The notes under the pieces are model-generated. The model had not been told where the DNA came from. It made no database searches and worked only from the letters and a program-made list of their open reading frames with translations. Below, piece after piece: positions 16,789 through 51,887 of a DNA stretch of 59,841 bases (its first letter is position 1; each line of letters begins with the position of its first letter). Position numbers and translations under genes: made by a program. Origin of the DNA: Deltaproteobacteria bacterium (lineage in GTDB: Bacteria > Desulfobacterota > Deferrimicrobia > Deferrimicrobiales > Deferrimicrobiaceae); assembly GCA_016218975.1 (NCBI GenBank), contig JACRCO010000098.1, positions 1-59,841 on the forward strand, given 5' to 3'.

Positions 16789-18126
16789 CTACTTCCGCAG
16801 TTCCTCCAGCGCCATCGTGTACGCGGGAAACCCCGGACGCAGCGAAAGAGCGGTCTCGAACAGTTCTTTCGCCCGATCGATCCCGCCCAAGTCCCGCCAG
16901 GCCGCGGCGAGATTCGCCGCTGCGTCGGCGCTCCAGGGTGCGACCGCCCGGGCGGTTTCCAGCAGGATGCGGGCCTCCTTCGGATTTCCCCTGCACAATT
17001 TGTACAGGCCGGCATTGGTGTATATGAATTCCGCGAAGATTCCGCATGAAGGGCATTCCGTCGGATCCATGTACGGATGGCCCGGAGACATCGCAGCCTG
17101 CAGTACGTTGTGCACATGCGGCAGGTGCCGGATCGCTCGCTGAAACAATTCATCGGCGCGCTGGAGAAGGACGGGATCCTGCCGCTCCGGGGCGGTCGCC
17201 GCCAACGTAGCCTGGTAAAAGGAGGCATCCGCTCCCGCTCTTCCGCTCGTCCGGTAGGCTTCCAGCTCTCCGTTGCTCAAGCCAAGGGCCGCCGCGCCGG
17301 CGAACAGGGGACTTGCGAAACTCGTTCCGAGCATTCCCGGTATTTCACGGATGCGAAAATCCGCCAGCATAGCCTGCGGAGCGTGGGGAGCCAGGGAAAA
17401 AGCCCTCTCCGTTTCGCCGCCGCCTTCCGCCGGGAGATTTTCCCTCGATTCGCTCATGAAGCCGACGGCGTACACGGCATCCTGGCGCCCGGGGCAGAAA
17501 ACGCTGCCCGAATTGTTGCCGGCGGCCGCGAACACCTTCTTGCCCTTGACTGCGGCCGCCGATGCCGCCTCGCACAGCACGCAGTCCGGGTTTTCGGGAG
17601 ACAATTTACGTTTGCTGAATGCCGCCCGCCCCAGAAGGATCTCCGAAAACATCCTGATGACTTCTTCCGTGAAGGAAAACTTGTGCGGAGTACCCAGGCT
17701 CAGGTTGACTATATCCGCATCGGACCCGGCCGCATCGCGTACCGCGTCCCTGACCGCATACGGATCGACCACCCCGTCCCTCACGACGGAATAAATGTCG
17801 AGCCTGCACTCCGGCGCCACTTCGGCGATGAGGAGCGCCACCACCGTCCCGTGCTGCATCGAAGCCTTTGCCCCGCTTTGCGGGACGTAGCTCTTCACGC
17901 GATCGACGAGCCCGGCCAGCTTTGGAATCGAAAGGTCGCAGAGCGAGTCGATGACGGCCACCCGTTTCCCGCTGCCGCGGTAGCCAAGACCGTGGGCATG
18001 TTTCACGGCGCTCCAAAAAGGTCCTTCCAGGGAAAATCGCCACTTGTCCGAGGCGGGATCGTAGCCGCCGAGCACCGCCTCGGCACCCGCGGCTCCCTCC
18101 AGCTCGCACCACAAGGGATGCGGCAT
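16789..18126 (-). CDS. Cytoplasmic subtilisin-like (S8) protease with C-terminal TPR region
   Basis: 445 residues with no signal peptide or propeptide. The catalytic triad is intact: Asp60 in VAVIDS, His92 in MQHGTVV and Ser269 in GTSFASP, with oxyanion Asn204 or Asn205 in AAAGNNSG and DIVNLSLGT in between. Residues about 320-445 form tetratricopeptide-like helices (ADELFQRAIRHLPHV, NPKEARILLETARAVAP, DRAKELFETALSLRPGFP) with an extra PTECPSCGIF pair of cysteines. Such a repeat tail on a cytoplasmic protease suggests recognition of a partner or trigger. It lies 9 nt after the 241-residue gene upstream, in one operon. It could be an executioner protease acting on that neighbour. Confidence 0.9.
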   Translation of the reverse strand: MPHPLWCELEGAAGAEAVLGGYDPASDKWRFSLEGPFWSAVKHAHGLGYRGSGKRVAVIDSLCDLSIPKLAGLVDRVKSYVPQSGAKASMQHGTVVALLIAEVAPECRLDIYSVVRDGVVDPYAVRDAVRDAAGSDADIVNLSLGTPHKFSFTEEVIRMFSEILLGRAAFSKRKLSPENPDCVLCEAASAAAVKGKKVFAAAGNNSGSVFCPGRQDAVYAVGFMSESRENLPAEGGGETERAFSLAPHAPQAMLADFRIREIPGMLGTSFASPLFAGAAALGLSNGELEAYRTSGRAGADASFYQATLAATAPERQDPVLLQRADELFQRAIRHLPHVHNVLQAAMSPGHPYMDPTECPSCGIFAEFIYTNAGLYKLCRGNPKEARILLETARAVAPWSADAAANLAAAWRDLGGIDRAKELFETALSLRPGFPAYTMALEELRK

Positions 18127-18135
18127 CGCAGCCTC

Positions 18136-18861
18136 CTATTCGGTGAATAACGGCCCGCGGGGAGAGATCTCCATCATGGGGATCTCAGGCATATCCCGCA
18201 TCGCTTGAGTAACTGTTTCCGTCCCCCACCAGTTAAGCCCGTAGAGCCGCAATAGAATGGGGCCCGCGCCTTCCAGTTGATAGCCGAGGTTCCGCGAGTC
18301 GAGTATGGATATGCCGACGTTCGCGATGTCGAAATTCCTGATCGCCGATACATCGCCCTTGAGACGCACCGACGCGTCGGAAGCGCCCGATACCAGGACC
18401 ACGAACCTGCCCGCCACCTCGACATGGCTCACCAGCAGATGGCCGGCCGGCCACTCCGGGCTTCTGTCGACGATGTGCTTCCGCACAGCCAGCAGATTCT
18501 CTATCTCGTTCGTACGCACATCCACCGCGTGGAACACGACCGCGCCTTCGGAGCCGAAGCTCAACTGGAAATCCAGGTCCACGGCGGGCCCCGGAGACGG
18601 GCCGGAAGCTACGGGCGCCGCTGCTCCAAGCTGAACGACCGTGCACTGGTTCGAGTGGAACTTCATGACATTGGGCTGCTGATTCTGCCGTTTCAGAATT
18701 TGCAGCTGTGGAAAAACGTCGCTTATGTTGCCCTGTCGCACGAAGGCATTGTTCTCTATCTTTCCGATGTCCCCGGGTCCGACCAGGTCCCCCGGCTGCC
18801 ACACCGGTATGTAGCTCAGCTCGTTCCGAACTTCCCTGGAGTACCGTTTTACAAGATTCAT
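18136..18861 (-). CDS. Unknown 241-residue protein coupled to the subtilase (gasdermin-like topology suspected)
   Basis: ATG 18861 has AGGAGGATGAAG directly upstream. There is no signal peptide and no enzyme motif. The N-terminal part reads LSYIPVWQPGDLVGPGDIG then QGNISDVFPQL, followed by a Pro/Gly linker and strands FGSEGAVVFHAVDVRTNEIE, LLVSHVEVAGRFVVLVS, VSAIRNFDIANVGISIL and GYQLEGAGPILLRLYGL. The last 28 residues (after NWWG) form a separate charged tail. This order of strands, with a short C-terminal tail, resembles my memory of bacterial gasdermins, which are activated by adjacent proteases. The N-terminal Cys typical of those proteins is missing. I do not claim the family; it is a hypothesis supported mainly by the operon with a protease. 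Confidence 0.7.
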   Translation of the reverse strand: MNLVKRYSREVRNELSYIPVWQPGDLVGPGDIGKIENNAFVRQGNISDVFPQLQILKRQNQQPNVMKFHSNQCTVVQLGAAAPVASGPSPGPAVDLDFQLSFGSEGAVVFHAVDVRTNEIENLLAVRKHIVDRSPEWPAGHLLVSHVEVAGRFVVLVSGASDASVRLKGDVSAIRNFDIANVGISILDSRNLGYQLEGAGPILLRLYGLNWWGTETVTQAMRDMPEIPMMEISPRGPLFTE

Positions 18862-18997
18862 CCTTCATCCTCCTTCGGCGGCGTGAGCGTTCCGGACATA
18901 CCAGTCCCACTTATCTGGATGAAGAAATATTACACCAATCTGCGATGTATTGCATAAAACAGTTATTGAGGTTGGCGCGTTGTAGAAAGCCTGACGA

Positions 18998-20989
18998 TCA
19001 AAACATCAATAAGCGCAATGCAACCTGCGGCAGGACGCGGACTTGCGAGAGGACGGCGATGCCCGCCTGCTGAATCATCCTGTGTTTTATCATGATTGCG
19101 GCTTCCGTTGCGAAATCCGCATCCTTGATCCTCGAACCTGCCGACGAAAGCGCATCGATCTGCGTTCGCTGCACGCTTATGACGCTTTCCAGCCGATTAC
19201 GGACAGCCCCCAGACCGGAACGCATTTCGTCCACCGATTCCATCGCGCCGTCGACGACGGCGATGGCGCCCATCGCCTGCTCGCGCGTGTCGATCCGCCG
19301 GAAGTCCGCCCTGTTTCCGAAGGAATCATAGCGCATGCCGTAAACCCCGGTCGCCGAACCGTCCTGGTTTTCCGAATCCCAGGCCACGATGAATCCGCCG
19401 CCATCGAGCCCGGCGACGGAACACGCCGATTGGTATCCATCCGTGTAATCGTTCACCCGGAATTCACCGCCCGCCATATTGCCGCCGGCATCGAATCGCT
19501 GTCCGTAAATTCCCGATCCCGACCCGTCCTGGTAAAGCGCTTCCCACACTACGACAAAGCCTCCGTCGTCGAGTTTCGTAATATCGGGATAATACTGGGG
19601 GTCTGCCGTTGTCGTATTCACCTGGAACTCGGTGCCTGATTTGCTGCCGTCGGCATTGAACCTCTGGGCCTTGACGTCGCCCCCCGAGCCCCAGGCGGCG
19701 ATGAACCCGCCGCCGTCCAGCGCCGCCACAGCGGGCATGTCCTGTGTGCCGGCGGTTATGGTATGCAGGGGGAACTCGACGCCCGCCCGGTTGCCGTCTG
19801 CGTCATATCTCTGCCCGTAGACGCCGTAACCGCTGCCGTCCTGCCCGACGGAATTCCACGTGACGACGAAGCCGCCGCTGTCGAGAGCCGCGACATCCGG
19901 CTGCATCTGCTGATTCTGCCAATAGGTATTCACCTGAAAATCATTGCCGAGCGCGGTGCCGGAGGAATCGTACCTTCGCGCAAATATGCCGTTGACGCTC
20001 CCGTCCTGCGGCCAGGACATCCAGGCGATCACGAAACCGCCTCCGTCGAGCGTTGCCGCCGACGGCGCCATCTGGTCCGCAAAGGTGGTGGAGTTTACCC
20101 TGAATTCACTGCCGGCGGGATTGCCGTCCGGGTCGTATATCCGGGAATAAACACCGTAGCCCGATCCATCCTGTCCCAACGAATCCCACGTGACGATGAA
20201 TCCTCCGTTCTCCAGGGCGATAACGGACGGCCTGTTCTGCTCGTTCGACCAATACCCATTCACCTGGAATTCGCTCCCCGCCTTGTTGCCGGAGGAATCG
20301 TATCTTTGCCCGAAGATCCCCTCGGCGGATCCATCCTGGTTCGTCGAAACCCAAGCCACCACGTATCCGCCTCCGTTAAGCGCCGTGACGGAAGGCCAAT
20401 ACTGGAAGTCGTTCGTCGTCGTATTTACCGGGCCTTCCGTGTCCGTGTAAAAACCCAGCGTTCCGGTCGATACCGCATCGAGCGAAACGGCAAGGGTGTC
20501 GTATCCGGCCGTACCGACTTTCAGGTTCACGTCGCCCGCCGAGCCGTCCAGAAGTTTCATCCCGTTGAACTCGGTGCCCCCCGCGATCCTGTCGATCTCC
20601 TCGACAAGATGCGCATATTCCTCCGATATCGAGCTTCTCTCCCGGCTGCCGAGAGAACCGTTGGACGCCTGGACCGAAAGTTCGCGCATCCGCCCAAGCA
20701 TTCCATCGACCGTGCTCAGGGCCGATTCCGCAACCTGGACCATCGAAATGCCGTCGTTCGCATTCCGTACGTCCTGGTACAGGCACTTGACCTTTGCGTC
20801 GATACTCGAGGACAACGCAAGCCCCGCGGCATCGTCGGACGCCGAATTGATCCGCAGCCCTGACGCAAGTCGCCTCACGGAACATTCCAGCCGGTTCCTC
20901 GTCACCGCGAGCGAACGACCCCCAATCGTGGACAGCATGTCGGAACAAATCGTCAAGGACAGCTTGGACTCTCCCCCCACGGCCTTCAT
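18998..20989 (-). CDS. fliC: Flagellin with a seven-repeat propeller-like variable domain
   Basis: About 663 residues. The D0/D1 ends are clear: RRLASGLRINSASDDAAGL, NDGISMVQVAESALSTVD and ELSVQASNGS at the N side; GAVRNRLESVISVQR and KDADFATEAAIMIKHRMIQQ at the C side. The middle (DNA 19300-20430) is seven repeats of about 50-57 residues. I chose ATG 20989, with GGAAGAAG about 9 nt upstream, over GTG 20998, which would leave almost no spacing. Four or more Cys occur (TICSDM, LECSV, VKCLY, SACSV), unusual for flagellin, and the C end reads VALRLLMF instead of the usual LLR. No other flagellar gene is in the window. Confidence 0.9.
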   Translation of the reverse strand: MKAVGGESKLSLTICSDMLSTIGGRSLAVTRNRLECSVRRLASGLRINSASDDAAGLALSSSIDAKVKCLYQDVRNANDGISMVQVAESALSTVDGMLGRMRELSVQASNGSLGSRERSSISEEYAHLVEEIDRIAGGTEFNGMKLLDGSAGDVNLKVGTAGYDTLAVSLDAVSTGTLGFYTDTEGPVNTTTNDFQYWPSVTALNGGGYVVAWVSTNQDGSAEGIFGQRYDSSGNKAGSEFQVNGYWSNEQNRPSVIALENGGFIVTWDSLGQDGSGYGVYSRIYDPDGNPAGSEFRVNSTTFADQMAPSAATLDGGGFVIAWMSWPQDGSVNGIFARRYDSSGTALGNDFQVNTYWQNQQMQPDVAALDSGGFVVTWNSVGQDGSGYGVYGQRYDADGNRAGVEFPLHTITAGTQDMPAVAALDGGGFIAAWGSGGDVKAQRFNADGSKSGTEFQVNTTTADPQYYPDITKLDDGGFVVVWEALYQDGSGSGIYGQRFDAGGNMAGGEFRVNDYTDGYQSACSVAGLDGGGFIVAWDSENQDGSATGVYGMRYDSFGNRADFRRIDTREQAMGAIAVVDGAMESVDEMRSGLGAVRNRLESVISVQRTQIDALSSAGSRIKDADFATEAAIMIKHRMIQQAGIAVLSQVRVLPQVALRLLMF
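19300..20430 (-). repeat. Seven tandem protein repeats inside the flagellin
   Basis: Each unit follows P-S-V-T-A-L-x-G-G-G-F-V-V-A-W, then Q-D-G-S-G-x-G-I-Y-G-Q-R-Y-D, then G-N-x-A-G-x-E-F-x-V-N. Six units have the QDGS turn; the fifth lacks it and is shorter. Four strands per unit and seven units fit a seven-bladed beta-propeller. Repeat DNA is diverged rather than identical, so this is an old amplification. Confidence 0.75.
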
Positions 20990-21182
20990 CGGGCACACTT
21001 CTTCCGCTAAGAGACACTCGGTCGTTTTTAGATTTTCTTAAGAGATCGGCGTGATTTAAACAAGCCGTAATAATTGACATTTCTGATATGCGGAAATAAT
21101 TGTCGTGTGATCGATTACGGTTGCGATGGAATACCGCCTGAACACCGCGCGGAAGTTCGGCGGAGGCACGTGGGACGGCGCG

Positions 21183-32107: not shown

Positions 32108-32530
32108 TCACTCCCCTCTTCTCTTCTTTACCTTAGGCAAGTGTTTCCCGATCTCGTTGCGTACTCGTCTAGCAAGGGCGACCGCCCGTCGCGCCTCGGT
32201 CAGAGAAATCTCCTCGAAATAGCCCGGGTAGCGCGCCTCCGTCGCGTAGGCAGTGAGTCTGCGTTGCTCCGATACCGAGAGCTTCGGCCGAACGTTTTTC
32301 GGCATCAGTGAAATGAGCCGGCCCAGATCATGGGTCTTCGGAAAATCAATGTTACTCGAAGCGAGATAAGCCTTGATCGATTTCTCGATGCATTGTTGCG
32401 CATGGAAACATACCGTATCCGTCGGGCATTCTTCGCCCAATGTCAGCGTGTGTGTTGCGGTCTTTAGGTCGTTTTCCGCTTTGACCGTCCATTCGCAAAC
32501 AACTTGCATTATGCGTTCACGGTCTGGCAT
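32108..32530 (-). CDS. HEPN-domain protein (partner of MNT nucleotidyltransferase), left pair
   Basis: 140 residues. EWTVKAENDLKTATHTL and CFHAQQCIEKSIKAYLASSN, followed by KTHDLGRLISL, are the core of the PF05168-type HEPN fold. The C-terminal ARRVRNEIGKHL has Arg and His in the spacing of the HEPN ribonuclease R-x(4-6)-H motif. HEPN proteins paired with minimal nucleotidyltransferases act as RNase toxins that the partner silences, often by adenylylation. It overlaps the partner gene by 14 nt. Confidence 0.85.
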   Translation of the reverse strand: MPDRERIMQVVCEWTVKAENDLKTATHTLTLGEECPTDTVCFHAQQCIEKSIKAYLASSNIDFPKTHDLGRLISLMPKNVRPKLSVSEQRRLTAYATEARYPGYFEEISLTEARRAVALARRVRNEIGKHLPKVKKRRGE

Positions 32531-32843
32531 ACACCACTTTCCCTTCCCGGGCAGCGGGCTTTTCTATCGTTCCTGAGATCTCCTTCCGCCAGGCAAAATC
32601 GTTAGGAGTCGTCACGATGATATCCTTCGGAATCCGAATGTCATCCAGTGCCACCGCGATTTCGATTGCCTTGTTCCGCTTCGACCCCCGCACAGGCATG
32701 ACGACCAGAAGATCCACATCGCTATCAGGCCCGGCATCTCCCCGGGCGTGCGATCCGAACAGGACGATCCGTTCCGGCCCGAACCGTTTGACGATCCGCC
32801 GCACCATGGTGTCGATCTTCCTCTGGACACCGGACGCCTTCAT
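32517..32843 (-). CDS. Minimal nucleotidyltransferase (MNT) antitoxin-like, left pair
   Basis: 108 residues. RIVLFGSHARGDAGPDSDVD carries the GS-x10-D-x-D catalytic motif of the minimal pol-beta nucleotidyltransferases, followed by IPKDIIVTTPNDF. GAGGTGAAC precedes ATG 32843. It is upstream of and overlapping the HEPN gene. The pair is likely a toxin-antitoxin or defence module that also stabilises the island. Confidence 0.88.
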   Translation of the reverse strand: MKASGVQRKIDTMVRRIVKRFGPERIVLFGSHARGDAGPDSDVDLLVVMPVRGSKRNKAIEIAVALDDIRIPKDIIVTTPNDFAWRKEISGTIEKPAAREGKVVYARP

Positions 32844-34640: not shown

Positions 34641-36089
34641 CTACCGACATCCTATCCAAGACACGTTGAACCCCGATAGCGGGTGGTCATAGAAGGATGA
34701 TCTACCGCTATACATCCTTCCGAGCAAGCTAGATTTTTCCATCAAGGCTTGCTTCAATAAATCAACGTCCTTTGCTCCGAGAGGCCGCAGCAGTTTTTCG
34801 GCGTTTTTCACAGGACCTGCTTGCAAGAGATATTTGGGTGGTTTTCTGCTCATGTACAATGAACTCCAAGGCCTCCATTTCAACCATCCCGATGTGTCCG
34901 TCTCTTGGATTATTCCTCGCAAAAATAGGAAATAATCCGCTTCCATAAAATCTTCAAATGATACAAATCGGCTGATATCGTCTTCCTCGTACCTGGCTTT
35001 CAGAATATCCGCGTGCAGCGATGCCCGACGCAGGTCCAATCGCTTATTCCGATCATCGAGCAATCGTACATGCTCTGATGCGTAATCGAACGATACGGTC
35101 CCCTCTCTGTTTATGCCGGAATTCCTGACATGTAAATCGTTGTCCAGCAAATCGGCGATTGTTTCCCACCTGTCTTCCTTAATGAGTAGCGAGAAAAGAT
35201 CTACTAAAAGCTCATGCCCGACGAACTTGAAGAAATCGAAGTCGCTATCCCTACTGCTGCCAGAAAATCCGGCAGGAGTGTTATATCGCTCCAGTAACTT
35301 GCCAAACCCCTTGTACACGGCGAGTGCAGCCGATGCAGCGTTCATCGCTGCCATCAGCTCGACAATACGACAGAACCCTGTGACTAGCGGTTTCGCACTG
35401 TCTATTGCCCGTAGCAGCAATTCATCGCGTTCTTCCTCGGTGGAATAATCTGGGGCGAGCGAAACGATACGATCCACCAGATTTTCCATGTACTTTCGGG
35501 CAAGGTTGGTTTGGTTTGGCTTATTACCCTCTATTGCCAACCGAAGCTGGGTGCCAATGGAGGGGCCTTCGGAAACATCGGGGGTTGCCTCACATTTCGC
35601 AATGATGGCACGTAACGCACCTTCAAGCTTACATTCCAGAACTTTGCGCTCAGGAGCACGTTCTGTGGCTTCCTCGGACATCTCATATGTGATGACGTAT
35701 TTCATTCGGAGATCAAAGGGAAGTTCCTCTGGGATTCCATAGGCCGTATTCATCACCAGGAGATATTTGTCCGGCCCCAGCGCTTTCATGGCGTACCCGA
35801 GCTCGATGAGGACGTTTGGATTCGGGGACAGTCTTTTCTCGCCTCGGTTGATGATCGATATATCGGCGACGAAAATGTGGGCTTGGTCGATCTTGTCGAG
35901 GATGGTCCTTCCAATGTCGGGTGAGCCCGGCACACCTTGGATATCGCGGTCCACAACAGGCTCTACTTTGAGTGAGTCGTCGGTGCGAATTGCTTTAGCA
36001 GCGTTTTCGAGGGACTTCTCGATGAATCCACGATTGGTAGCGTTGGGGAGATCAGACTGCCACGAATAAAAGATTGTGTATTTCCTCAC
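34641..36089 (-). CDS. TIR-like domain protein with a large helical C-terminal region
   Basis: 482 residues from GTG 36089, which overlaps the upstream stop (GTGA). Residues 1-150 read KYTIFYSWQSDLPNATNRGF, VVDRDIQGVPGSPDIGRTI, AHIFVADIS and NPNVLIELGYAMKAL, a TIR-like or nucleotide-hydrolase Rossmann fold common in bacterial conflict systems. The Glu in LIELGYA matches the usual position of the TIR catalytic Glu. Residues 165-482 have no domain I recognise and no SAVED or STING signature. Last gene of the array. It may be an NAD-consuming effector with the C-terminal part as sensor. Confidence 0.75.
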   Translation of the reverse strand: MRKYTIFYSWQSDLPNATNRGFIEKSLENAAKAIRTDDSLKVEPVVDRDIQGVPGSPDIGRTILDKIDQAHIFVADISIINRGEKRLSPNPNVLIELGYAMKALGPDKYLLVMNTAYGIPEELPFDLRMKYVITYEMSEEATERAPERKVLECKLEGALRAIIAKCEATPDVSEGPSIGTQLRLAIEGNKPNQTNLARKYMENLVDRIVSLAPDYSTEEERDELLLRAIDSAKPLVTGFCRIVELMAAMNAASAALAVYKGFGKLLERYNTPAGFSGSSRDSDFDFFKFVGHELLVDLFSLLIKEDRWETIADLLDNDLHVRNSGINREGTVSFDYASEHVRLLDDRNKRLDLRRASLHADILKARYEEDDISRFVSFEDFMEADYFLFLRGIIQETDTSGWLKWRPWSSLYMSRKPPKYLLQAGPVKNAEKLLRPLGAKDVDLLKQALMEKSSLLGRMYSGRSSFYDHPLSGFNVSWIGCR

Positions 36090-37921
36090 GGCGCGTCGGG
36101 TCCTGGATTGGCTTTCGCGAGAGACCTAACGACCATGTGGATCCTCTCAAGGGCCTCGGCGCATTTTTCTATCAGTTGTAATCCCTGCTGGATACCGTGC
36201 TTTGACAAGTCAATACCCGCTTTCCCCATCGCGAGATCGGCTTCACTGCTAGGTAGATGAGCATCGGCAAGCCGGAGTTCGTACACGCCGAACAATGGAG
36301 TCATAATGGTGTAGGAGTCGGCGGCTGAGACAACCGTTGCGAGCACTTTCTCCAACGACTTGAGCGAACCCCATTTCTCTCCCTTCGGCGGTGGGACGAG
36401 ATTCTGTAACGCCTCGGTATCCAGGCTATCCGCGGTCAACCGGGCAACGTCCTTTGCCTGGGCCAACAGGCCGTTCCGATCGTAGGCGCGGAACCGGTGG
36501 ACTCTATGCAGAAGTTCCAAACGGTGCGGATGGCCACGGAACAGTGGGGTGCCGGTCACCGTCCGGAATACTTCGTCGAGGGAGGCCATTGCGTCGGCGA
36601 GACGACGTTCAGGTGCGGTGGTGTCAGCCGGCATGGCGCGCATCTGAGACGCCAGAAGCTCCTCCGAGACGCCTCCCTCCGGGCCGACGTTGAAGGCCGC
36701 CCAGATACGCTGCTGCCATTCCGGTAGTAGTGCGATGTCTTTCGCGTACACGTTGACCAGCCCGATGCTGTTCACACCGAAGCGTATCTTGTAATCGGGT
36801 GAGCATCGAACATGACCGGTATCTCTTGTATGCCAGCCGAGAGCGCCGCCCCGTCTATGGGCCAGAACTGGGATCACTTCAGGCTTGAACCACAACCAGC
36901 GACTGTCGCGGACGAGCGTGTCCTTTGACTCGCGTTTGCCCGACGCGTCCGTCAGGAAGAACACCGCTCCCGGCACGTGATCTCGACGGATGCGCGGGCT
37001 GTGCTCGCTTGGGTCGATCCACTCGTTGCGCCAATTCTCTCCCTGTACGAAGAAGAGCTTCCTTTCGTGTCGCCCGAAGGTCCAGGATCTTGACGAGACG
37101 TTCTCATCGGTCGGAAAACCAAAAACTGGCACGTCCTCGCCCGGGTCTATGTCGGTCCGCGAGACGTGAAACACTGCGGTCTCAGCTCCGTACGGCGTAC
37201 CCCCTTCATGAATCGCAGTGACCCGTCCCTCCCAGCGGTTGTCATCAGTTCCCTGGAAGAAGGGGTTATCTGTCCACCCGATATGGCTTGCGTCCTCCAC
37301 CACCTCCTCGCGGTTTCGATACGAGGTGATGTAGAGGCCCATGTTCCTTGCACAAAGATAATCACGAAGGAGATCGGAACGGATTTCCATCAGGGTTGGG
37401 TACCCGTTGGGGTGCCGCGACAACCTAGCGACTTCCGTGTAATCCTCGTCCGGACAAACCCATTTATCACCCTCTCTTAGCAGGCCCAAAGTAACCACCA
37501 GATCCTGATGGAGATGCCACACCGAATGCTCACTGCTGTTTATGCGTTGTTCGAGCACCAGTGCAATCCCGAACGGCCGCTCCGGATCGGCCTCGTGCAC
37601 GTCAGCAGGGATGTATCGTCCCTTATCTACGCAGCCTCTGTGTTCGTGGCCAATGCCAATGTCGCTCCATCCGAGACGCATAGCCTCTTTCTTGCTTCCG
37701 ACCGGAATTGCCAGGGACCCGGCACCGAAAAATTCCTCCCGGAATCCAAGATGCCCACGCTGTCCTTCCTCATGCACACCATGGATTGCACGCAGGGGAA
37801 TCCACACCGCCTTCGCAAATGAGCGGCGCCGAAGATCTGCCATCTCGAACCACAATTGGTCCATCATGGCGCAGCACATCCACTGATCTGCTTCCTCATG
37901 TCGATTACGTACCCGATCCAT
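36086..37921 (-). CDS. Unknown 611-residue protein between S-4TM effector and TIR protein
   Basis: I do not recognise a family. The ATG at 37921 overlaps the upstream stop by 17 nt; ATGs at 37879, 37867 and 37864 are alternatives. No membrane segment or signal peptide is visible. The N-terminal two thirds look like mixed alpha/beta with many aromatic and His residues (SVWHLHQDLVVTLGLLREGD, LGWHTRDTGHVRCSPDYKI). A conserved-looking patch is KDIALLPEWQQRIWAAFNV then PEGGVSEELLASQ. The last 200 residues are helical (RRLADAMASLDEVFRTVTG, GLQLIEKCAEALERIHMVV). It overlaps the TIR gene by 4 nt, so the two are translated together. Confidence 0.7.
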   Translation of the reverse strand: MDRVRNRHEEADQWMCCAMMDQLWFEMADLRRRSFAKAVWIPLRAIHGVHEEGQRGHLGFREEFFGAGSLAIPVGSKKEAMRLGWSDIGIGHEHRGCVDKGRYIPADVHEADPERPFGIALVLEQRINSSEHSVWHLHQDLVVTLGLLREGDKWVCPDEDYTEVARLSRHPNGYPTLMEIRSDLLRDYLCARNMGLYITSYRNREEVVEDASHIGWTDNPFFQGTDDNRWEGRVTAIHEGGTPYGAETAVFHVSRTDIDPGEDVPVFGFPTDENVSSRSWTFGRHERKLFFVQGENWRNEWIDPSEHSPRIRRDHVPGAVFFLTDASGKRESKDTLVRDSRWLWFKPEVIPVLAHRRGGALGWHTRDTGHVRCSPDYKIRFGVNSIGLVNVYAKDIALLPEWQQRIWAAFNVGPEGGVSEELLASQMRAMPADTTAPERRLADAMASLDEVFRTVTGTPLFRGHPHRLELLHRVHRFRAYDRNGLLAQAKDVARLTADSLDTEALQNLVPPPKGEKWGSLKSLEKVLATVVSAADSYTIMTPLFGVYELRLADAHLPSSEADLAMGKAGIDLSKHGIQQGLQLIEKCAEALERIHMVVRSLAKANPGPDAP

Positions 37922-38834
37922 TTCGTGAACAGGTCCGCAAGAGATACCGCTTCACCATCACGTCGGTCGCATCCACCATGGTGCCTTCCTGGTATGTCCG
38001 ACAGAAACTGTAGAAGATGTCCAGAATCGGAGTGTTCGTTCTTCGGTGATCATAAATCCGGTCTTGCAGATGGCGTGACTCGACCTCAAGAATTTCTTCG
38101 GACAGTTTCTCCTTCATTACCCTGTCCCATAGCGCCTCCGAGTCGTTTCTAATCTTCTCCACCGTGTCGGCGGACTCGTTCTGCCGGATGTACTCGCGGA
38201 TGAGCCACAGAAAAAGTGGCAAGGCTGGCGATAGCACGGATAGAACGACATCCCGGACGTCCATCCGGCGCCAGAATCCAGCGACCAACACCACAGCACC
38301 AAGGGCGATCAGAACAGCGAGAACACCGCCGGTGTAGCGACTGCGGAGACCGGCGTCCCACACTACATTCCCTCGCTGGCACAGAATACGGGCAACTGGG
38401 AGCGGCACTTTCCCGACCGAAATCGGGTACCACTCCGACACGCGTTTTCTGCTGATAGCGTCCTGTCCCGCTTTCCGAAATGCGTCGCTGATTGTCTCTT
38501 CCGGCTCCTCCTTTCCAACCCTCCGCTCATGCCACTCCATTCCCAACAAGTCACAGTCGAACTTCTCCTGTATTCGTGCAGCGGATTCTTTCAGTCTCTT
38601 CAGGAGGTAGTAGGGAATAACTGCGTCACCAGCGGAGACAAGAACGCTATACAAGCCGACCCAGGGCTTGAGGTCCGACCAAGCAATGAGTGCAAAGGCA
38701 AGACCTACTGGGGCGAGGACGACCAAGACCATCTGCACTTTCAATATTCGTTTCGCCCGCATGTACAGGTGGTTGGATGCCGCCCACAACTTAAAGAACG
38801 ATTCCTGCGCCAGTCTCTCCGGAATATCGTTCAT
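37905..38834 (-). CDS. S-4TM-type predicted pore-forming effector
   Basis: 309 residues with four transmembrane helices in two hairpins: VQMVLVVLAPVGLAFALIAW, WVGLYSVLVSAGDAVIPYY, VLAVLIALGAVVLVAGFW and VVLSVLSPALPLFLWLI. The cytoplasmic parts read FDCDLLGMEWHERRVGK, then ISDAFRKAG, and near the end HLQDRIYDHRRTNTPILD. This layout matches the S-4TM family proposed as membrane-damaging effectors of nucleotide-signalling defence systems. It starts 9 nt after the CD-NTase stop, so the two probably form a type I CBASS-like signal/effector pair. Confidence 0.8.
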   Translation of the reverse strand: MNDIPERLAQESFFKLWAASNHLYMRAKRILKVQMVLVVLAPVGLAFALIAWSDLKPWVGLYSVLVSAGDAVIPYYLLKRLKESAARIQEKFDCDLLGMEWHERRVGKEEPEETISDAFRKAGQDAISRKRVSEWYPISVGKVPLPVARILCQRGNVVWDAGLRSRYTGGVLAVLIALGAVVLVAGFWRRMDVRDVVLSVLSPALPLFLWLIREYIRQNESADTVEKIRNDSEALWDRVMKEKLSEEILEVESRHLQDRIYDHRRTNTPILDIFYSFCRTYQEGTMVDATDVMVKRYLLRTCSRNGSGT

Positions 38835-38843
38835 CGTCGTCTC

Positions 38844-39731
38844 TTACGATGCACGTTTAGGGAAGTATCCGTTGAATACGATGTCCCATTGCCGCCTAGC
38901 TTCGACATGATCGCCCTTTTTCTCCGCGCTATAGGCGTACGCAGCATGGTTGGCGGAAGCGGCGATGGAGCGGCTGACCTTTTCCTGATACGCCGCCGTC
39001 CTTGCGGCTGGCACCAACCCGGAAATGCGAAGCGGATCCTGCATCGCCCTACAGTTACGTTCCTTAAGATCCCATAACGCCTTTGCAACGCAATACGAGT
39101 AACTGCTCACGCCCGAGCAGATTCCAGAATCCGCGAGGTACAGTTCAATATGGAATGACGACAGTCTGATGTCTGCCTCCCGGCAGTGACGCCAGTATTT
39201 CAAAAGTCTGGACACATACCGGAGCTTCCTGCCTGATGCCTCGTTGGCACTCTCGATATAGGTGTCATGTGAATCGGGACTTGCCACCTTCCACTCCCCG
39301 CCCCCTTTGGGGATGAGATACATCGGACGCTTCTGCGCGCTGAACCCGTGGAATACGGCGGGAACCACGTCCACCGAGTTTGCGCCGCCGCCGAATTTTA
39401 CGACGACGGCCTGCTCGTCCCGGGAGATCTGCGTGTTCGGATACCGCCCCGTCAGGTCCTTTCTGATCTTCTCAATAAACGTTTCGGAACTGATCCTCCG
39501 GTCACCCCACTGCGATTCGGCGACCGGAAACAGTACGAAGAAGTCGACATCGCTATGGCGACGGATCGCAGTCCCTCGCTTGTGGCTACCGGCAAGGAAA
39601 ATCTTCTTAATTCCGAAGGAGTCTACGAGGCGTCTGTTGATCGTGGACATCTTCGTTCTGATGTCCGCAAGTTCTGAGTCAAGAGGCTCGATACGGTCAA
39701 GCAGGGTGGCGAATGCATCTCCAACTTTCAT
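38844..39731 (-). CDS. CD-NTase (cGAS/DncV-like nucleotidyltransferase), second copy
   Basis: 295 residues from ATG 39731, which has AGGAAGGGG upstream; ATG 39761 is weaker. FLAGSHKRGTAIRRHSDVDF holds the GS motif and the first two catalytic Asp, and ANSVDVVPAVF the third. SSFHIELYLAD and the helical C-terminal half fit the SMODS type. It should make a cyclic di- or trinucleotide on infection and signal to the S-4TM protein next door. It is clearly different from the CD-NTase at 42219: no shared stretches beyond the catalytic motifs. Confidence 0.85.
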   Translation of the reverse strand: MKVGDAFATLLDRIEPLDSELADIRTKMSTINRRLVDSFGIKKIFLAGSHKRGTAIRRHSDVDFFVLFPVAESQWGDRRISSETFIEKIRKDLTGRYPNTQISRDEQAVVVKFGGGANSVDVVPAVFHGFSAQKRPMYLIPKGGGEWKVASPDSHDTYIESANEASGRKLRYVSRLLKYWRHCREADIRLSSFHIELYLADSGICSGVSSYSYCVAKALWDLKERNCRAMQDPLRISGLVPAARTAAYQEKVSRSIAASANHAAYAYSAEKKGDHVEARRQWDIVFNGYFPKRAS

Positions 39732-39887
39732 TCGGAACGTTCCCCTTCCTGTCTTTTCCATTTCTCTGTGTATATTGCCGGTCTGTCAAGCCATTCCAAG
39801 GAACCAGTTCCGGCCGCGGAAAGCACCTTAGATAGCGACGCACCAAAACAGGAATATCTAATGTCTCGCCGGCCGCAATCTCGCTAT

Positions 39888-44922: not shown

Positions 44923-46122
44923 TTACAGGTCCCCTCGGAACGCGCGATGGAGAAGGGATTGGAACAGATCGTCCAGCCGGCGGCAGGATTCGGCTTGCTT
45001 GGCCTCAAGCAAGCGGATCTCAGCAACGCGGGCGGCGAATTCTTTTTGCAGAGATAACGGTGGCCTGAAGCATTTGTAGCCCTCAATGAAACTTCGTGGA
45101 ACTCGCTGTTGCCCTGCGGTACCGGTAAAGTTTATCTCTGCCTCTTTTATGAATCCATCTCGCCGAATGATCGAAAAGATGAATTGGGCTTGTACTTCCG
45201 GGCGTGGACGAAGCACGATAAATTCAGTGGAGCCGAACCCTATTCCACCAATCAGATCTTGAGCAATGGCTGCCTTGCCGTTTTGCATACATGGTGTGAT
45301 CTTTGCGAAAAGGACGTCTCCATCCTTAAAGGACGTAAAACCTTTTGACACCCCGGAAAGTAATCTCGTCTCTGGCCGAGCGATAACTCCTGCCTTTTCA
45401 TCTACCGCAGCCATCGGGATAAAAGAGACAGCGGTGTCGGGCGATATCCCCGTGGTATTGAGAGGTCGCGGGTTTATCTCTGCTAGTTCACCCAAGGTGG
45501 CATTTGGCCACCCTTTCGGGTTCGCCGCAAGATCCCCGAACATCTCTTTGAACAACGCAGGAATTAGGTTCCCCGTACGATGGTCGGCCTCCTCTCTGAG
45601 ACGGCGGAGTCGATCTGCGGTATCGAGAATCGTCACGATCCTTTCCTGCACAGAGATGCACGGAACCGGAATCCGCGAGTTGGTCATGAAGTTTGTAGGA
45701 ACACGCTGTTGCCCCGCCGTTCCGGTGAAATTTGCCTCTGCAGCCGTCCTGAAAGACGGTTGTCGTACAAAAGCAAAAACCCACTCCGGGAGCACTTCCG
45801 GTCCCGGACGCAACACATGGAATTCAGTGGAACCAAATCCGATGCCTCCGGTCAGATTCCGGGCGATCGCCGCCTTGCCGTTTTGCATGCATGGAGTGAT
45901 TTTGGCGCAGAGAACATCATTCTCCCGAAAGGAGGTGTACCCCTTCGAGACTTCTCCGCACCGCTTGACTACCGCAAAACGTATCGACCCGGTTGTTTCG
46001 TCGATGGCGGACATCGGAACGAAGGATACTTCGGTCTCGGCAGGCGGTAGACCGCCTTTCCCCTCCCGAGGGTTGATCTGACAAACATCTCCAAGCCGTT
46101 TTTCGGGCCAAACCTGTTTCAC
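44923..46122 (-). CDS. hsdS: Type I restriction-modification specificity subunit
   Basis: 399 residues from GTG 46122, overlapping the hsdM stop. The two target-recognition domains are strongly alike: VPMSAIDETTG and IPMAAVDEKAG, then KGYTSFRENDVLCAKITPC and KGFTSFKDGDVLFAKITPC, then MQNGKAAIA-x2-L-x-GGIGFGSTEF in both. Each is followed by a conserved helix (RLRRLREEADHRTGNLI; EIRLLEAKQAESCRRLDDL). HsdS sets the bipartite DNA target; near-identical domains predict two equal or similar half-sites. Confidence 0.92.
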   Translation of the reverse strand: MKQVWPEKRLGDVCQINPREGKGGLPPAETEVSFVPMSAIDETTGSIRFAVVKRCGEVSKGYTSFRENDVLCAKITPCMQNGKAAIARNLTGGIGFGSTEFHVLRPGPEVLPEWVFAFVRQPSFRTAAEANFTGTAGQQRVPTNFMTNSRIPVPCISVQERIVTILDTADRLRRLREEADHRTGNLIPALFKEMFGDLAANPKGWPNATLGELAEINPRPLNTTGISPDTAVSFIPMAAVDEKAGVIARPETRLLSGVSKGFTSFKDGDVLFAKITPCMQNGKAAIAQDLIGGIGFGSTEFIVLRPRPEVQAQFIFSIIRRDGFIKEAEINFTGTAGQQRVPRSFIEGYKCFRPPLSLQKEFAARVAEIRLLEAKQAESCRRLDDLFQSLLHRAFRGDL

Positions 46123-47621
46123 TTCCCTACCTCGGCCAGCAATGCCTTCGCTTGTTTCGCAATCTTCTCTTCGAGAACCAATACCTCCGCAAGGATTTCC
46201 TTCGGCGTGTCGTGATTGACGGCTTCAGCCGCGATGACCTTGTACCGGCCCACTGCAAGGCTGCCGTCGTTCTCGACGATCTTCTCGACCGGTATACGGA
46301 GGCTATTCGGTCCCTCCTCTCGGCCGGTCCATTTGGCGAGAACGTCGGGGATGTCGTTCGCCTCTGTCGTCGTTCGTTTGTCGTCGAGGGAGTAGCCATC
46401 CGCGGTAATATCGTAAAACCAGACGGTCTTGGTCCTCCCTCCCTTCCTGAACACCAGGAATGCCGTGCTGACTCCGGCGTAGGGTCTGAACACCCCCGAC
46501 GGCATGGAAACCACGGCTTGCATCTCGCACTCGTTCAGGAGCATATCGCGGAGTTTCTTGTGCGACCTCGTGGCCCCCGAAAGGACACCGGCGGGCACGA
46601 TTACCCCTGCGCGTCCTCCCGGAGCGAGATGGTCAATGAACCACTTCAGAAACAGCAGTTCGGTATCGCGGGTGGGTAGATTGATGTCAGAAAGAATGCT
46701 TTCCTTCTGGATCGACCCGGCAAAGGGAGGATTCGCGAGTATCACATCGTAGGTGGCTCCCGGGTACTTCCCACTGATGCTTGTCGTCAACGGATTGAAG
46801 AACTCGATGTTGGCCTTCTCCAGACCGTGCAGGTACAGGTTCAGGATGGCGATCTTCACCATGTTCGCGTCGTTGTCGTACCCGGTGAAGGCCATCTCGT
46901 CCAGGTGCTTCCATTGCTTTGGTTTCAGGAGCGATCCGTCGATGGTGCCTTTTTCCAAGTCCGCCGGATTCGTGTGCTGCTTCATGATGTGGTAGAAGGC
47001 GGAGATGAGGAACCCGGCAGTTCCGCACGCCGGGTCGCAGATCTGTTCCATCGGTTGTGGGTTCACCATCGCCACGATCATGTCGATGATGTGCCGGGGA
47101 GTCCGGAATTGCCCGTTTGTGCCCGAGACGGCGATCTTGCCGAGCAGGTACTCGTACATGTCCCCCTTAAAGTCGTGGCCGTCGGTCGTAGTGAGATCCA
47201 TGTCGTTAATGGCTTGGACGACGGCACGCAGCGTGGGGCGGTCGTAGATCTTTAGCGTGGCGCGGTTGAAGAGCAGTTGGCCTGTTGCCGACAGGCCGGG
47301 CAGGCCGTGGATCGCCTCGATGGCGCCGCGGACCGTCTCGAACAACTCGTCTCCGGCCAACGTGACGAAATGCTCCCAGGAATATCTCTCCCACTTCCCT
47401 GAGAAGATCTTCTTGTACGTCTTGCTGACGGCCGCCCGTTGATTGTCTTTCTCGGTAAGGAGTCGCAGGAAAAGCAGGTAGGAGATCTGCTCGATTGAGT
47501 CCATGGGATTGTTGACACCACCCGAGTAGAGCATGTCCATGAGGGCGTCGACCTTCCCACGAAGGCCGGAAGAGAAGAAGTTGTTCCCGTTCGATGGAAC
47601 CGTGATGATGCTCGGCGTCAT
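46119..47621 (-). CDS. hsdM: Type I restriction-modification methyltransferase subunit
   Basis: 500 residues. It is the N6-adenine methyltransferase of the complex. Motif I is ICDPACGTAGFLISAF, motif IV ILANPPFAGSI. The N-terminal HsdM helical domain (KVDALMDMLYSGG, EQISYLLFLRLLTEKD) is present. Its ATG overlaps the hsdR stop and its stop overlaps the hsdS start, so the three subunits are coupled in the order R-M-S. Confidence 0.95.
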   Translation of the reverse strand: MTPSIITVPSNGNNFFSSGLRGKVDALMDMLYSGGVNNPMDSIEQISYLLFLRLLTEKDNQRAAVSKTYKKIFSGKWERYSWEHFVTLAGDELFETVRGAIEAIHGLPGLSATGQLLFNRATLKIYDRPTLRAVVQAINDMDLTTTDGHDFKGDMYEYLLGKIAVSGTNGQFRTPRHIIDMIVAMVNPQPMEQICDPACGTAGFLISAFYHIMKQHTNPADLEKGTIDGSLLKPKQWKHLDEMAFTGYDNDANMVKIAILNLYLHGLEKANIEFFNPLTTSISGKYPGATYDVILANPPFAGSIQKESILSDINLPTRDTELLFLKWFIDHLAPGGRAGVIVPAGVLSGATRSHKKLRDMLLNECEMQAVVSMPSGVFRPYAGVSTAFLVFRKGGRTKTVWFYDITADGYSLDDKRTTTEANDIPDVLAKWTGREEGPNSLRIPVEKIVENDGSLAVGRYKVIAAEAVNHDTPKEILAEVLVLEEKIAKQAKALLAEVGK

Positions 47622-50020
47622 GCGTTTATCGCTCCTTGGATGGACTGCCGCACCAGCATCGACTGGCGCAGGGCTCCGAACACCTCATCGCGGTGCTCGA
47701 ACCGTGCCAGAGCGGGAAGCCCACCGATCTTATTGAACTGGCTGCTGTCGTACAGGGTGACGTCGTTGTCGAGGAACTTCCGGAGCGATTCGGGGTCTTC
47801 CGCCACGAGCCCCGCCATGGCGCTCAAGAGCTTCTGCTCGCTGTACCTCAGGTTGAAGCGAGCGGCGATCGAGTCCACCGTATCGTCGACGATCTCGTCT
47901 TTGGTGGGAAGCGGGCGCCGGCCGAAGGCCCCGTAAACGAAGGACGGTGTCGGGGCCGGGACGTCATAAGCCTTGACCAGCTTGTCCGCAGAGTAGAACA
48001 TCTCCGGCTTGTGGAAGAACCGCTCCTGCATGATGGTCTCCACAGCGTCGTCGTCCTCGTTTTCCACGGCTTCCTTGAACGCCGGGTCTTTCTCGGCAAA
48101 TTCCTGGACGTCCTTCTCGAAGCGGCCTCGGAAGGTCAGGATGTCCACCTTCTCCCCGTCCGGGCCGACGATCCGTATCTCCTCCGAAACCACGATGTCT
48201 CGGCCCGTCCAAACGGGGATTTCCTTTGGGGGCTTGGGAGGACCCGGCTCCGGCGGTACGAGTTCCGGCCCGACGCCTGGACCGGGGCCCGGACCAGGGG
48301 GTGTAGTCGGGGGAGCCTCCCCACCCTTGGGGATCGGCAACAGGATGGGAATGGTGTAGTCATATTTCTCCTCGAAGTATTCCGCGACACCGCAGAAATC
48401 GAGGATGAAGTAATGTTCCTTGTCGTAGGCTTTACCGTCGTGCTTGAACGTGTAGAGCCTCGTCCCCCGACCCTTGATCTGAATGTATTCCGTCGGGGAA
48501 AAAACGGGGCGCATGAGCACGATGTTCAGGAGATTGCGGCAGTTGTAGCCTGTGGACAGCATGTCCACGGACACGGCGACGCGCTCCTTCCGCTTTCCGT
48601 CACGGAACTCCTTGGCGATCGACGAGGAGTCTGGAATCCGTGAGGTGATCGTCACCGCAATCTCCGGTTGCATGTCGTTTAGGATCTTCGTGATGTTGGT
48701 CGCGTGGGTCTGGTTTACAGCAAAGATGATGGACTTTCCGAGGCTTCCGTTGGGCTCGCGCTGAGCGTGTTTCAGGAACTCCTCACACATGACCCGGTTG
48801 CGCTCAGGTGTGAAGATCTTCCGTTCGAGGTCCTGGACCTTGTAGTTCTCCTCCCGCTCGTCGATCGTGACGGCCCACCCGCCATCGTCCAGGGCCTGCG
48901 TCGTGATGTCCGACCGGATGTCGAAGATCTTGGGCGTACAGAGGAACGGGCCTTCGGGATCCTTCGAACCCTCTATCATGTCGTACCGGAAGGTCGGCTC
49001 CCCCGGTTCACAACCGAAGTAGATGTAGGTGTCGCGGAGCTGGCGGGCCTCAAGGGCCTTCGGGTTTTCCTGCCCCAGAGCGCCAATGTCCACATTGAGG
49101 AGGTATGCCTTGGGGGTGGCGGTCAGGCCGATACGCGTCGCCTGGAAGAACTGGACACATTCCCGGGCATCGCCGTAGATGGACCGGTGGGCCTCGTCGT
49201 TGATAACCAGGTCGAAGTGGAACGGGGTGAACTCCGTCCGGTAACGGCGGTCGACCATCAGTGACTGGATCGTGGCGACAACCACACAAGAGCCGAGCAG
49301 CTCCAGAGGGCGGCGGCGCGCGGTCTTGAAGATTACCGGCTTGTAGTCCCGGAGGATAACCTCGAAGTCCTCCATCGTCTGCTTGGCAAGCTCGATGCGG
49401 TCCACAATAAAGAGGATGCGCTCGGCGTTCCGGGTGACGAGGAACCTCCTGCCAAGGGCGGCGCAGAGCAGTGTCTTGCCGGTTCCGGTTGCCATCTCCA
49501 AAAGGAATTTCCGCTTCCCCTGCTCGTCGAACTGATTGGAAACTTCGTCGATCGCTCGGATCTGATACCCGCGGAGGCCGATGTCTCTCCGAAATGGCTT
49601 GAGGTAATCCGAGCCGATGGGTTCCGACATCAGGGGACTGGGCGGCTTGAGATTCTTCTGGCGGAGCCGATCGAGATCCTCCTGGGAGGGGAACCGTTCG
49701 ATACGGTAGGCATCTCGCTGGTCGGCCCGCTCATAGTTCCAGAACCAGTGCTGTCGGCCGTTGGAGAGGATGACAAAAGGCACCTTGGCGGTCTCGGCGT
49801 ATTTGCGAGCCTGCTCCTTGGCGTCGTAAGGGTCCTCGTCCTCGCGCTTTGCTTCAAGGACAGCGAGGGGACCGTATTTTCCGAAGAGGAGGTAATCTAC
49901 GCGGCCGCTCGAACCCGTTACCTCGAACCGGACAACCTTGTCGTCGAGGATGTTCCAACCGCTATCTCGAAGTGCTTTGTCGATAAGGACACGAGAGAAT
50001 GCTTCGTTGTAGCCGGTCAT
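47618..50020 (-). CDS. hsdR: Type I restriction-modification endonuclease/translocase subunit
   Basis: 800 residues. The N-terminal nuclease has DYLLFGKYGPLAVLEAKRED (Asp and E-x-K). The SF2 motor has EMATGTGKTLLCAALG (Walker A), VINDEAHRSIYG (DEAH), VDMLSTGYNCRNL and IQIKGRGTRLYTF (motif VI). A Pro/Gly-rich linker (GPGPGPGVGPELVPPEPGPP) separates the motor from the C-terminal helical domain. Ribosome site GGAGGAGCC precedes ATG 50020. It is the first large gene of the array. Confidence 0.94.
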   Translation of the reverse strand: MTGYNEAFSRVLIDKALRDSGWNILDDKVVRFEVTGSSGRVDYLLFGKYGPLAVLEAKREDEDPYDAKEQARKYAETAKVPFVILSNGRQHWFWNYERADQRDAYRIERFPSQEDLDRLRQKNLKPPSPLMSEPIGSDYLKPFRRDIGLRGYQIRAIDEVSNQFDEQGKRKFLLEMATGTGKTLLCAALGRRFLVTRNAERILFIVDRIELAKQTMEDFEVILRDYKPVIFKTARRRPLELLGSCVVVATIQSLMVDRRYRTEFTPFHFDLVINDEAHRSIYGDARECVQFFQATRIGLTATPKAYLLNVDIGALGQENPKALEARQLRDTYIYFGCEPGEPTFRYDMIEGSKDPEGPFLCTPKIFDIRSDITTQALDDGGWAVTIDEREENYKVQDLERKIFTPERNRVMCEEFLKHAQREPNGSLGKSIIFAVNQTHATNITKILNDMQPEIAVTITSRIPDSSSIAKEFRDGKRKERVAVSVDMLSTGYNCRNLLNIVLMRPVFSPTEYIQIKGRGTRLYTFKHDGKAYDKEHYFILDFCGVAEYFEEKYDYTIPILLPIPKGGEAPPTTPPGPGPGPGVGPELVPPEPGPPKPPKEIPVWTGRDIVVSEEIRIVGPDGEKVDILTFRGRFEKDVQEFAEKDPAFKEAVENEDDDAVETIMQERFFHKPEMFYSADKLVKAYDVPAPTPSFVYGAFGRRPLPTKDEIVDDTVDSIAARFNLRYSEQKLLSAMAGLVAEDPESLRKFLDNDVTLYDSSQFNKIGGLPALARFEHRDEVFGALRQSMLVRQSIQGAINA

Positions 50021-51130: not shown

Positions 51131-51553
51131 TCAGGTATTGCCTTTCAAAATTTCATCCGGTAATAACGACCGTATCCTATCCCTTACTCGGCGAGCCATT
51201 TCCACTGCTCCCGAAGCCTCTTCTTCGGTAATCGGGTCCCAATTCCCCGGGTACCTCCCCTCGATCGAATAACGGTTCAACGGAAGAACCTGATCCGGAG
51301 GAAGATCGAGTGCAGTATGATGGCAGGCAAGATCAAGCAGCACGCGCAGGTCGTGTGTCCTGGGATATGAAATCCCATGCAGGACGAGGATGCCTTTCAG
51401 ATACTTTTCGACGCATTGCTGGCTATGAAAACAAACGACCTCCGCGAGCCCTTCACATACCAATTGCATATTATGTTTTGCCGCGGTCAGATCATGTTCC
51501 GCTTTCTCGACCCAGAGAAACACCTCGTGAACGATTTCAGGCCGCACGTTCAT
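51131..51553 (-). CDS. HEPN-domain protein, right pair
   Basis: 140 residues from ATG 51553 (AAGGTAAGG 6 nt upstream); a longer frame to 51619 overlaps the partner more and lacks a ribosome site. FLWVEKAEHDLTAAKHNMQL, VVCFHSQQCVEKYLKGILVL and RTHDLRVLLDLACHH are the PF05168-type HEPN core. The C terminus RRVRDRIRSLLPDE has no His after the Arg, unlike the left-hand HEPN, so ribonuclease activity may be weak or lost. It overlaps its MNT partner by 17 nt, the same arrangement as the left pair. Confidence 0.85.
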   Translation of the reverse strand: MNVRPEIVHEVFLWVEKAEHDLTAAKHNMQLVCEGLAEVVCFHSQQCVEKYLKGILVLHGISYPRTHDLRVLLDLACHHTALDLPPDQVLPLNRYSIEGRYPGNWDPITEEEASGAVEMARRVRDRIRSLLPDEILKGNT

Positions 51554-51866
51554 AAATAACCTTACCTTCGCGAATCGCCTCGCGGATGATGGTTCCCACG
51601 CAATCCTGGTATATCTCAACTTCCTCGGGGGTCACGACGATTATGTCTGTCGGTATCGGTATTCCTACAAGTAGCAAATCGATCTCGACTGCAGTCATTC
51701 GCTTGGAACCCGTTACATTCATGACGATCAACAGATCGGCATCGCTGTCCGCTGTCTGCTTGCCACGTGCATACGAACCGAACAAAATGATTTTTTCCGG
51801 CCGAAAACGCTCCGTTATACGCTCCACGATCTTCTGAAGAACAACCTTTATTTCCGTCTCGGTCAC
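51537..51866 (-). CDS. Minimal nucleotidyltransferase (MNT), right pair
   Basis: 109 residues. I prefer GTG 51866, with GGAGAAGGG 9 nt upstream, to a TTG at 51887 that abuts the tRNA fragment. KIILFGSYARGKQTADSDAD has the GS-x10-D-x-D motif, followed by IPTDIIVVTPEEV. It resembles the left MNT in layout but differs throughout, so the two pairs are related families rather than a recent duplication. Confidence 0.88.
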   Translation of the reverse strand: MTETEIKVVLQKIVERITERFRPEKIILFGSYARGKQTADSDADLLIVMNVTGSKRMTAVEIDLLLVGIPIPTDIIVVTPEEVEIYQDCVGTIIREAIREGKVIYERAA

Positions 51867-51887
51867 GATCTCAACCCTTCTCCTCAA

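What the first reader, a model, noticed from the sequence alone, without database searches (positions are those of the whole stretch)
16789..18861. Cytoplasmic subtilase-TPR plus a gasdermin-like small protein
A leaderless S8 protease with an intact triad and a TPR tail sits 9 nt after a 241-residue protein. The small protein's strand order (VVFHAVDV, LLVSHVEVAGRFVV, VSAIRNFDIANVGISIL, GYQLEGAGPILLRLYGL) and its short C-terminal tail recall bacterial gasdermins, which proteases free by removing such a tail. The pair lies outside the recognised island and could be a self-contained cell-death module.
Basis: inference. Interest (0 to 1): 0.75.

Follow-up and report, generated by a model that had tools for sequence, protein, structure and literature searches.

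The report
Divergent bacterial gasdermin beside subtilase-TPR protease
A small bacterial protein in a two-gene cluster with a subtilisin-like protease belongs to a previously unlabelled branch of the gasdermins, the pore-forming proteins that let cells kill themselves, so this pair probably works as a protease-triggered suicide switch like the one known in fungi.

Summary
A 241-aa protein (18136-18861, minus) is followed 9 nt later by a leaderless 445-aa S8 protease with D60/H92/N204/S269 motifs and a TPR tail. No Pfam, NCBIfam, PADLOC or PHROGs model matches the small protein. Remote searches found six homologues in several phyla (22-30% identical). A profile of the seven has one significant PDB match among 177,635 sequences: 7n50, a solved bacterial gasdermin, E = 3.8e-5, colinear over about 165 residues. 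The match survives shuffle and jackknife controls and exceeds what known bacterial gasdermins score against each other.

Homologues sit beside other proteases: CHAT-TPR in three, caspase-SUMF1 plus CHAT in one, a weak transglutaminase-like protein in one, none in one. In the three CHAT cases it is the only CHAT gene of the replicon or genome; the window's S8 gene is the only one in its genome.

The gasdermin reading is supported by sequence and neighbourhood, not by fold: AlphaFold failed with two sequences (pLDDT 34). The pair most resembles fungal HET-Q1/HET-Q2 (gasdermin plus S8 protease) and, unlike most bacterial gasdermins, lacks an N-terminal cysteine. Cleavage, pore formation and phage defence are inferred.

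The parts
18136..18861 (-). Gene for a 241-aa divergent bacterial gasdermin-like protein (pore-forming body about residues 1-209)
   Evidence: ORF; six homologues; profile match to bacterial gasdermin 7n50, E = 3.8e-5
18139..18234 (-). C-terminal tail, residues 210-241 (NWWG...FTE), proposed autoinhibitory peptide removed by the protease
   Evidence: Lies after the last conserved block; variable in length and sequence across homologues. The role is inferred from known bacterial gasdermins (PMC9612521)
16789..18126 (-). Gene for a 445-aa cytoplasmic S8 (subtilisin-like) protease with a C-terminal TPR tail, proposed activator
   Evidence: Peptidase_S8 E = 1e-12, TPR_19 E = 2.7e-6; triad motifs D60, H92, S269 and oxyanion N204, no leader
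16831..17025 (-). TPR repeats, residues 368-432 of the protease, proposed sensor or docking part
   Evidence: Pfam TPR_19, TPR_2, TPR_12 matches
18869..18873 (-). Shine-Dalgarno site GGAGG of the gasdermin gene
   Evidence: Sequence
18132..18136 (-). Shine-Dalgarno site GGAGG of the protease gene, overlapping the gasdermin stop codon (translational coupling)
   Evidence: Sequence

Best explanation
The pair is a two-gene, protease-activated gasdermin system. The 241-aa protein is a divergent bacterial gasdermin held inactive by its short C-terminal tail. The co-translated cytoplasmic S8 protease uses its TPR tail to receive an unknown signal, probably phage infection or a partner protein. It then clips the gasdermin tail. 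The freed N-terminal body oligomerises in the inner membrane and opens a large pore, killing or arresting the cell. Shown here: the gene pair, intact protease motifs, sequence homology to a solved bacterial gasdermin, and repeated pairing of the family with unrelated proteases. Inferred: autoinhibition, cleavage, pore formation and the trigger.
For: The profile of seven homologues has one significant PDB match, bacterial gasdermin 7n50, E = 1.8e-4 with full-length proteins and 3.8e-5 with tails removed, colinear (positions 23-185 against 25-193). Next hits are at 0.0067 or worse and are unrelated. The score is 25.7 bits against a best of 10.1 in 5,000 shuffles; leaving out any one member gives 18.8-25.1 bits. 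Known bacterial gasdermins match each other less well (7n50 with 7n52 E = 0.09-0.2). Neighbours: CHAT protein 182 nt upstream in Embleya; CHAT-TPR divergent in Streptomyces; CHAT-TPR 38 nt upstream in the Syntrophus MAG (title); caspase-SUMF1 and CHAT within a few genes in Mesorhizobium. In the Embleya and Streptomyces plasmids and the Syntrophus MAG the neighbouring CHAT gene is the only one; the S8 gene is the only one in the window's genome. Catalytic His and Cys motifs are present in the partner CHAT and caspase proteins.
Against: No confident predicted structure could be made. The sequence link rests on one solved gasdermin; 7n51, 7n52 and 9v2s do not reach the list, and a five-member profile missed 7n50. 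One homologue (G337) has no adjacent protease. The N-terminal cysteine that is palmitoylated in most bacterial gasdermins is absent from all seven. No functional data exist for any member.
Confidence: 0.78

Rival explanations
1. The small protein is a protease-activated effector of a different, non-gasdermin fold that only resembles gasdermin in sequence pattern; it is still released by neighbouring proteases in a conflict system.
For: No usable structure model; only one gasdermin of several in the PDB is matched; no N-terminal cysteine.
Against: The match to 7n50 is colinear over about 165 residues, significant, and robust to jackknife and shuffling, and gasdermins are precisely the proteins expected beside CHAT, caspase and S8 proteases (PMC9612521, PMC10989679).
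Confidence: 0.12
2. The small protein is an inhibitor, chaperone or foldase of the protease rather than its substrate effector.
For: Tight translational coupling is also seen for protease-inhibitor pairs; the S8 protease has no obvious propeptide.
Against: The same family sits beside S8, CHAT and caspase proteases, which share no common fold to inhibit or assist; gasdermin similarity.
Confidence: 0.06
3. The two genes are a chance neighbourhood in which each has its own separate role.
For: No relatives of either gene in close genomes, so conservation of this exact pair cannot be tested; one homologue lacks a protease neighbour.
Against: 9-nt coupling, sole S8 gene of the genome next to the sole gasdermin-like gene, and independent protease neighbours of the homologues.
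Confidence: 0.04

Closest known systems
Bacterial gasdermins (bGSDM) with adjacent caspase-like or trypsin-like proteases (Johnson et al. 2022; structures 7n50, 7n51, 7n52)
   Same: Size (241 aa against 259-268), colinear sequence similarity to 7n50, short variable C-terminal tail, adjacent protease gene, patchy distribution
   Different: Not recognised by any family library used; no N-terminal cysteine for palmitoylation in any of seven members; here the partner is a subtilisin-like S8 protease with TPRs; the pair lies about 16 kb from the nearest recognised defence genes
Fungal HET-Q1 / HET-Q2 (and Q2-like) gasdermin-protease pairs
   Same: Gasdermin paired with an S8 subtilisin-like protease, Q2-like partners often carrying TPR repeats; about 17% of fungal partners are CHAT instead of S8, paralleling the swap seen here (PMC10989679, PMC12881547)
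   Different: Bacterial genes, 9 nt apart; HET-Q1 and HET-Q2 themselves are alternative genes at one locus used in allorecognition; no sequence comparison with fungal gasdermins was made here
TPR-CHAT proteases (Craspase type) and other TPR-protease conflict proteins
   Same: Protease fused to TPR repeats acting as a switchable cytoplasmic activator; CHAT-TPR partners of the homologues
   Different: The window protease is S8, not CHAT; no CRISPR gene was seen beside it
IetS/IteS-type S8 anti-phage peptidase
   Same: S8 fold; weak profile similarity (E = 0.00086)
   Different: Far below the NCBIfam cut-off (12.6 against 900 bits); no AAA ATPase partner

Membership tests
Bacterial gasdermin | Sequence homology to known bacterial gasdermins | tested here: met
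   Profile of seven members hits 7n50 at E = 3.8e-5, sole significant PDB match; controls. Weak in absolute terms
Bacterial gasdermin | Gasdermin N-terminal domain fold | tested here: inconclusive
   AlphaFold pLDDT 33.7 and 34.8 with two-sequence alignments; Foldseek matches meaningless
Bacterial gasdermin | Short C-terminal tail after the conserved body | tested here: met
   32-residue variable tail; other members about 30-70 residues. Inhibition itself not tested
Bacterial gasdermin | Adjacent protease gene (usual, not universal) | tested here: met
   S8-TPR here; clear protease in five of seven loci
Bacterial gasdermin | N-terminal palmitoylated cysteine (in most, not all, members; so not a defining feature in the strict sense) | tested here: not met
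   No Cys in the first 12 residues of any of seven; not universal in known members (PMC9612521)
Bacterial gasdermin | Proteolytic activation and membrane pore formation | not testable with these tools
   Needs bench work
S8 (subtilisin-like) peptidase | Asp-His-Ser triad and oxyanion Asn in the S8 order | tested here: met
   D60, H92, N204, S269 in canonical motifs; Pfam PF00082 E = 1e-12 over nearly the full model
HET-Q1/HET-Q2-like pair | Gasdermin plus S8 protease, the protease cleaving near the gasdermin C-terminus | tested here: inconclusive
   Gene content met; cleavage and relation to the fungal proteins not tested

The most novel reading that the evidence does not exclude
The seven proteins are a separate, cysteine-less (palmitoylation-independent) clade of bacterial gasdermins, missed by current family models. 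Its members have repeatedly exchanged their activating protease (S8-TPR, CHAT-TPR, caspase-SUMF1, possibly a TIR plus transglutaminase-like protein). The S8-TPR pair would be a bacterial counterpart of the fungal HET-Q system.
Probability: 0.5. Interest if true: 0.7.

Novelty: new variant of a known kind. Interest (0 to 1): 0.62.

Why it matters
Bacterial gasdermins are the presumed ancestors of the proteins that drive pyroptosis in animals. A branch that current models do not recognise, without the usual lipid anchor and with interchangeable proteases, means their spread is underestimated. It also gives natural tests of how a short tail can be matched to very different proteases. The S8-TPR pair would give fungal S8-gasdermin systems a bacterial parallel.

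Tried and rejected
Viral contigs: seven scans, no homologue. Phage records: none. Close relatives of the genome: none in 98, so the pair was probably acquired horizontally, though its base composition is like that of the window. Homologues of the S8-TPR protein: none in plasmids (E 1e-5) or in 394 other genomes of the phylum (E 1e-10). Canonical 7n50-like gasdermins in the phylum or in plasmids: none, so a bridging profile could not be built. hhalign to 7n52 and 8sl0 fragments was not significant. A conserved cleavage site in the tail was looked for in the alignment and not found. A link between the flagellin-like gene upstream and gasdermin activation (as in NAIP-NLRC4) was considered and dropped for lack of evidence.

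Full report
OBSERVATION. The window holds, on the minus strand, a 241-aa ORF (18136-18861) and a 445-aa ORF (16789-18126), separated by 9 nt. Both have strong Shine-Dalgarno sites and that of the second gene overlaps the stop of the first, so they are very likely translated together. The longer protein is an S8 peptidase (Pfam E = 1e-12, nearly full model) with TPR repeats at residues 368-432. D60, H92, N204 and S269 lie in canonical S8 motifs and there is no hydrophobic leader. It is the only S8 gene found in the 2.95-Mb genome. The small protein has no match in Pfam, PADLOC, NCBIfam or PHROGs, and none in the PDB as a single sequence.

HOMOLOGUES. tblastn over 72,556 plasmids found four distant homologues: Embleya, Mesorhizobium, Gemmatirosa and Streptomyces avidinii. 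The searches are reciprocal and saturate at these four. A profile search of 395 genomes of the window's phylum found two more, G220 and G337. G220's contig has the same length as PNOM01000052.1, a Syntrophus MAG, recovered independently. No homologue occurs in 98 close relatives, in 340 genomes of another class of the phylum, in phages or in viral contigs. Pairwise E-values among the seven are mostly 1e-10 to 1e-30 at 22-30% identity. Invariant features include a Y near position 7, W21-x-P23, G30-D31-x-G33, F102 and V144-x-x-V147. The last 30-70 residues are variable.

GASDERMIN SIMILARITY. A profile of the seven proteins searched against all 177,635 distinct PDB sequences has one significant match: 7n50, named Gasdermin, E = 1.8e-4, 3.8e-5 with tails removed. 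The alignment is colinear, 23-185 to 25-193, and includes the P-x-x-x-x-x-G-D motif, the F-S block and the V-V-x-x-V-x-x-A block. The next matches (0.0067, a designed protein; 0.015, a phage virion protein) are unrelated. A five-member profile did not find it, so the result depends on alignment depth. As controls, leaving out any one sequence gives 18.8-25.1 bits (E 0.012 to 1.3e-4), and the best of 5,000 shuffles of the 7n50 fragment scores 10.1 bits against 25.7. hhalign gives P = 1.1e-4 for the true fragment and no better than 0.11 for 30 shuffles. For scale, the solved bacterial gasdermins barely recognise each other by sequence: 7n50 against 7n52 E = 0.09-0.2, 7n51 against 7n52 E = 1.6. 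The family thus sits within the known spread of bacterial gasdermins. That 7n50 is the Bradyrhizobium tropiciagri gasdermin is my own knowledge; the PDB table names it only Gasdermin.

FOLD. Their Foldseek results are noise. The fold is therefore neither confirmed nor contradicted.

NEIGHBOURS. Embleya: a TPR-CHAT protein ends 182 nt upstream on the same strand (CHAT E = 4.7e-14). Streptomyces: a 1,200-aa CHAT-TPR protein is the divergent neighbour (E = 4.6e-62). Syntrophus MAG G220: a 1,645-aa TPR-CHAT protein ends 38 nt upstream. Mesorhizobium: a caspase-SUMF1 protein lies two genes away and a CHAT protein four genes away. Gemmatirosa: a protein with a weak transglutaminase-like match (E = 0.025) and, by eye, a TIR-like N-terminus ends about 30 nt upstream. 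G337: no protease neighbour apart from a putative M50-type housekeeping gene about 2 kb away. CHAT genes are rare: the neighbouring one is the only CHAT gene in the Embleya plasmid (292 annotated features), the Streptomyces plasmid (212) and the G220 genome.

MECHANISM. In known bacterial gasdermins a C-terminal peptide of about 20 residues wraps the body and holds it inactive, adjacent proteases remove it, and the body forms pores (PMC9612521; PMC12547243). In fungi HET-Q1 loses about 40 C-terminal residues to the S8 protease HET-Q2. About 60% of fungal gasdermin-linked proteases are S8 and 17% CHAT, often with TPR, ANK or WD40 repeats (PMC10989679; PMC12881547). The window pair fits this plan. 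Its likely action is signal to TPR tail, activation of the S8 domain, tail removal, pore, death or arrest. The signal, the cleavage, the pore and the benefit against phage are inferences.

WHAT DIFFERS. Most bacterial gasdermins carry a palmitoylated N-terminal cysteine (PMC9612521, PMC9079055); none of the seven here has a cysteine in the first 12 residues. The reviews I could read name caspase-like (C14, CHAT), trypsin-like and U49 peptidases as bacterial partners and S8 only for fungi. The primary list of Johnson et al. 2022 was not available, so S8 pairing in bacteria may already be recorded there.

VERDICT. A divergent, unlabelled branch of bacterial gasdermins, here with an S8-TPR protease: a new variant of a known kind.

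Noticed in passing
window 37905-39761 (-): CBASS-like pair: CD-NTase (PADLOC Cyclase E = 1e-58) and a 4TM effector (E = 1e-85), with a weakly TIR/SEFIR-like protein at 34641-36089.
   Followed up: partly
window 44923-50020 (-): Type I restriction-modification genes (HsdM and HsdR by PADLOC; the gene at 44923-46122 looks like HsdS by eye), part of the same defence island, well over 16 kb from the gasdermin pair.
   Followed up: partly
window 18998-20998 (-): Flagellin-like N-terminus followed by repeats of the type GGGFVVTWDSxGQDGSGYGVYGQRYD and a short flagellin-like C-terminus, directly upstream of the gasdermin gene on the same strand; an unusual flagellin with an inserted repeat domain.
   Followed up: no
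L004 7390-9723: Gemmatirosa kalamazoonensis plasmid: a TIR-like plus transglutaminase-like protein directly upstream of the gasdermin homologue, a possible new type of activator.
   Followed up: partly
L003 5382-14350: Mesorhizobium plasmid pMspAR10a: gasdermin homologue near both a caspase-SUMF1 protein and a CHAT protein, with an ASCH-domain gene directly downstream.
   Followed up: partly
window 32108-32843 and 51131-51887 (-): Two nucleotidyltransferase plus HEPN-like small-gene pairs (by eye, minimal nucleotidyltransferase toxin-antitoxin type) at either side of the defence island.
   Followed up: no
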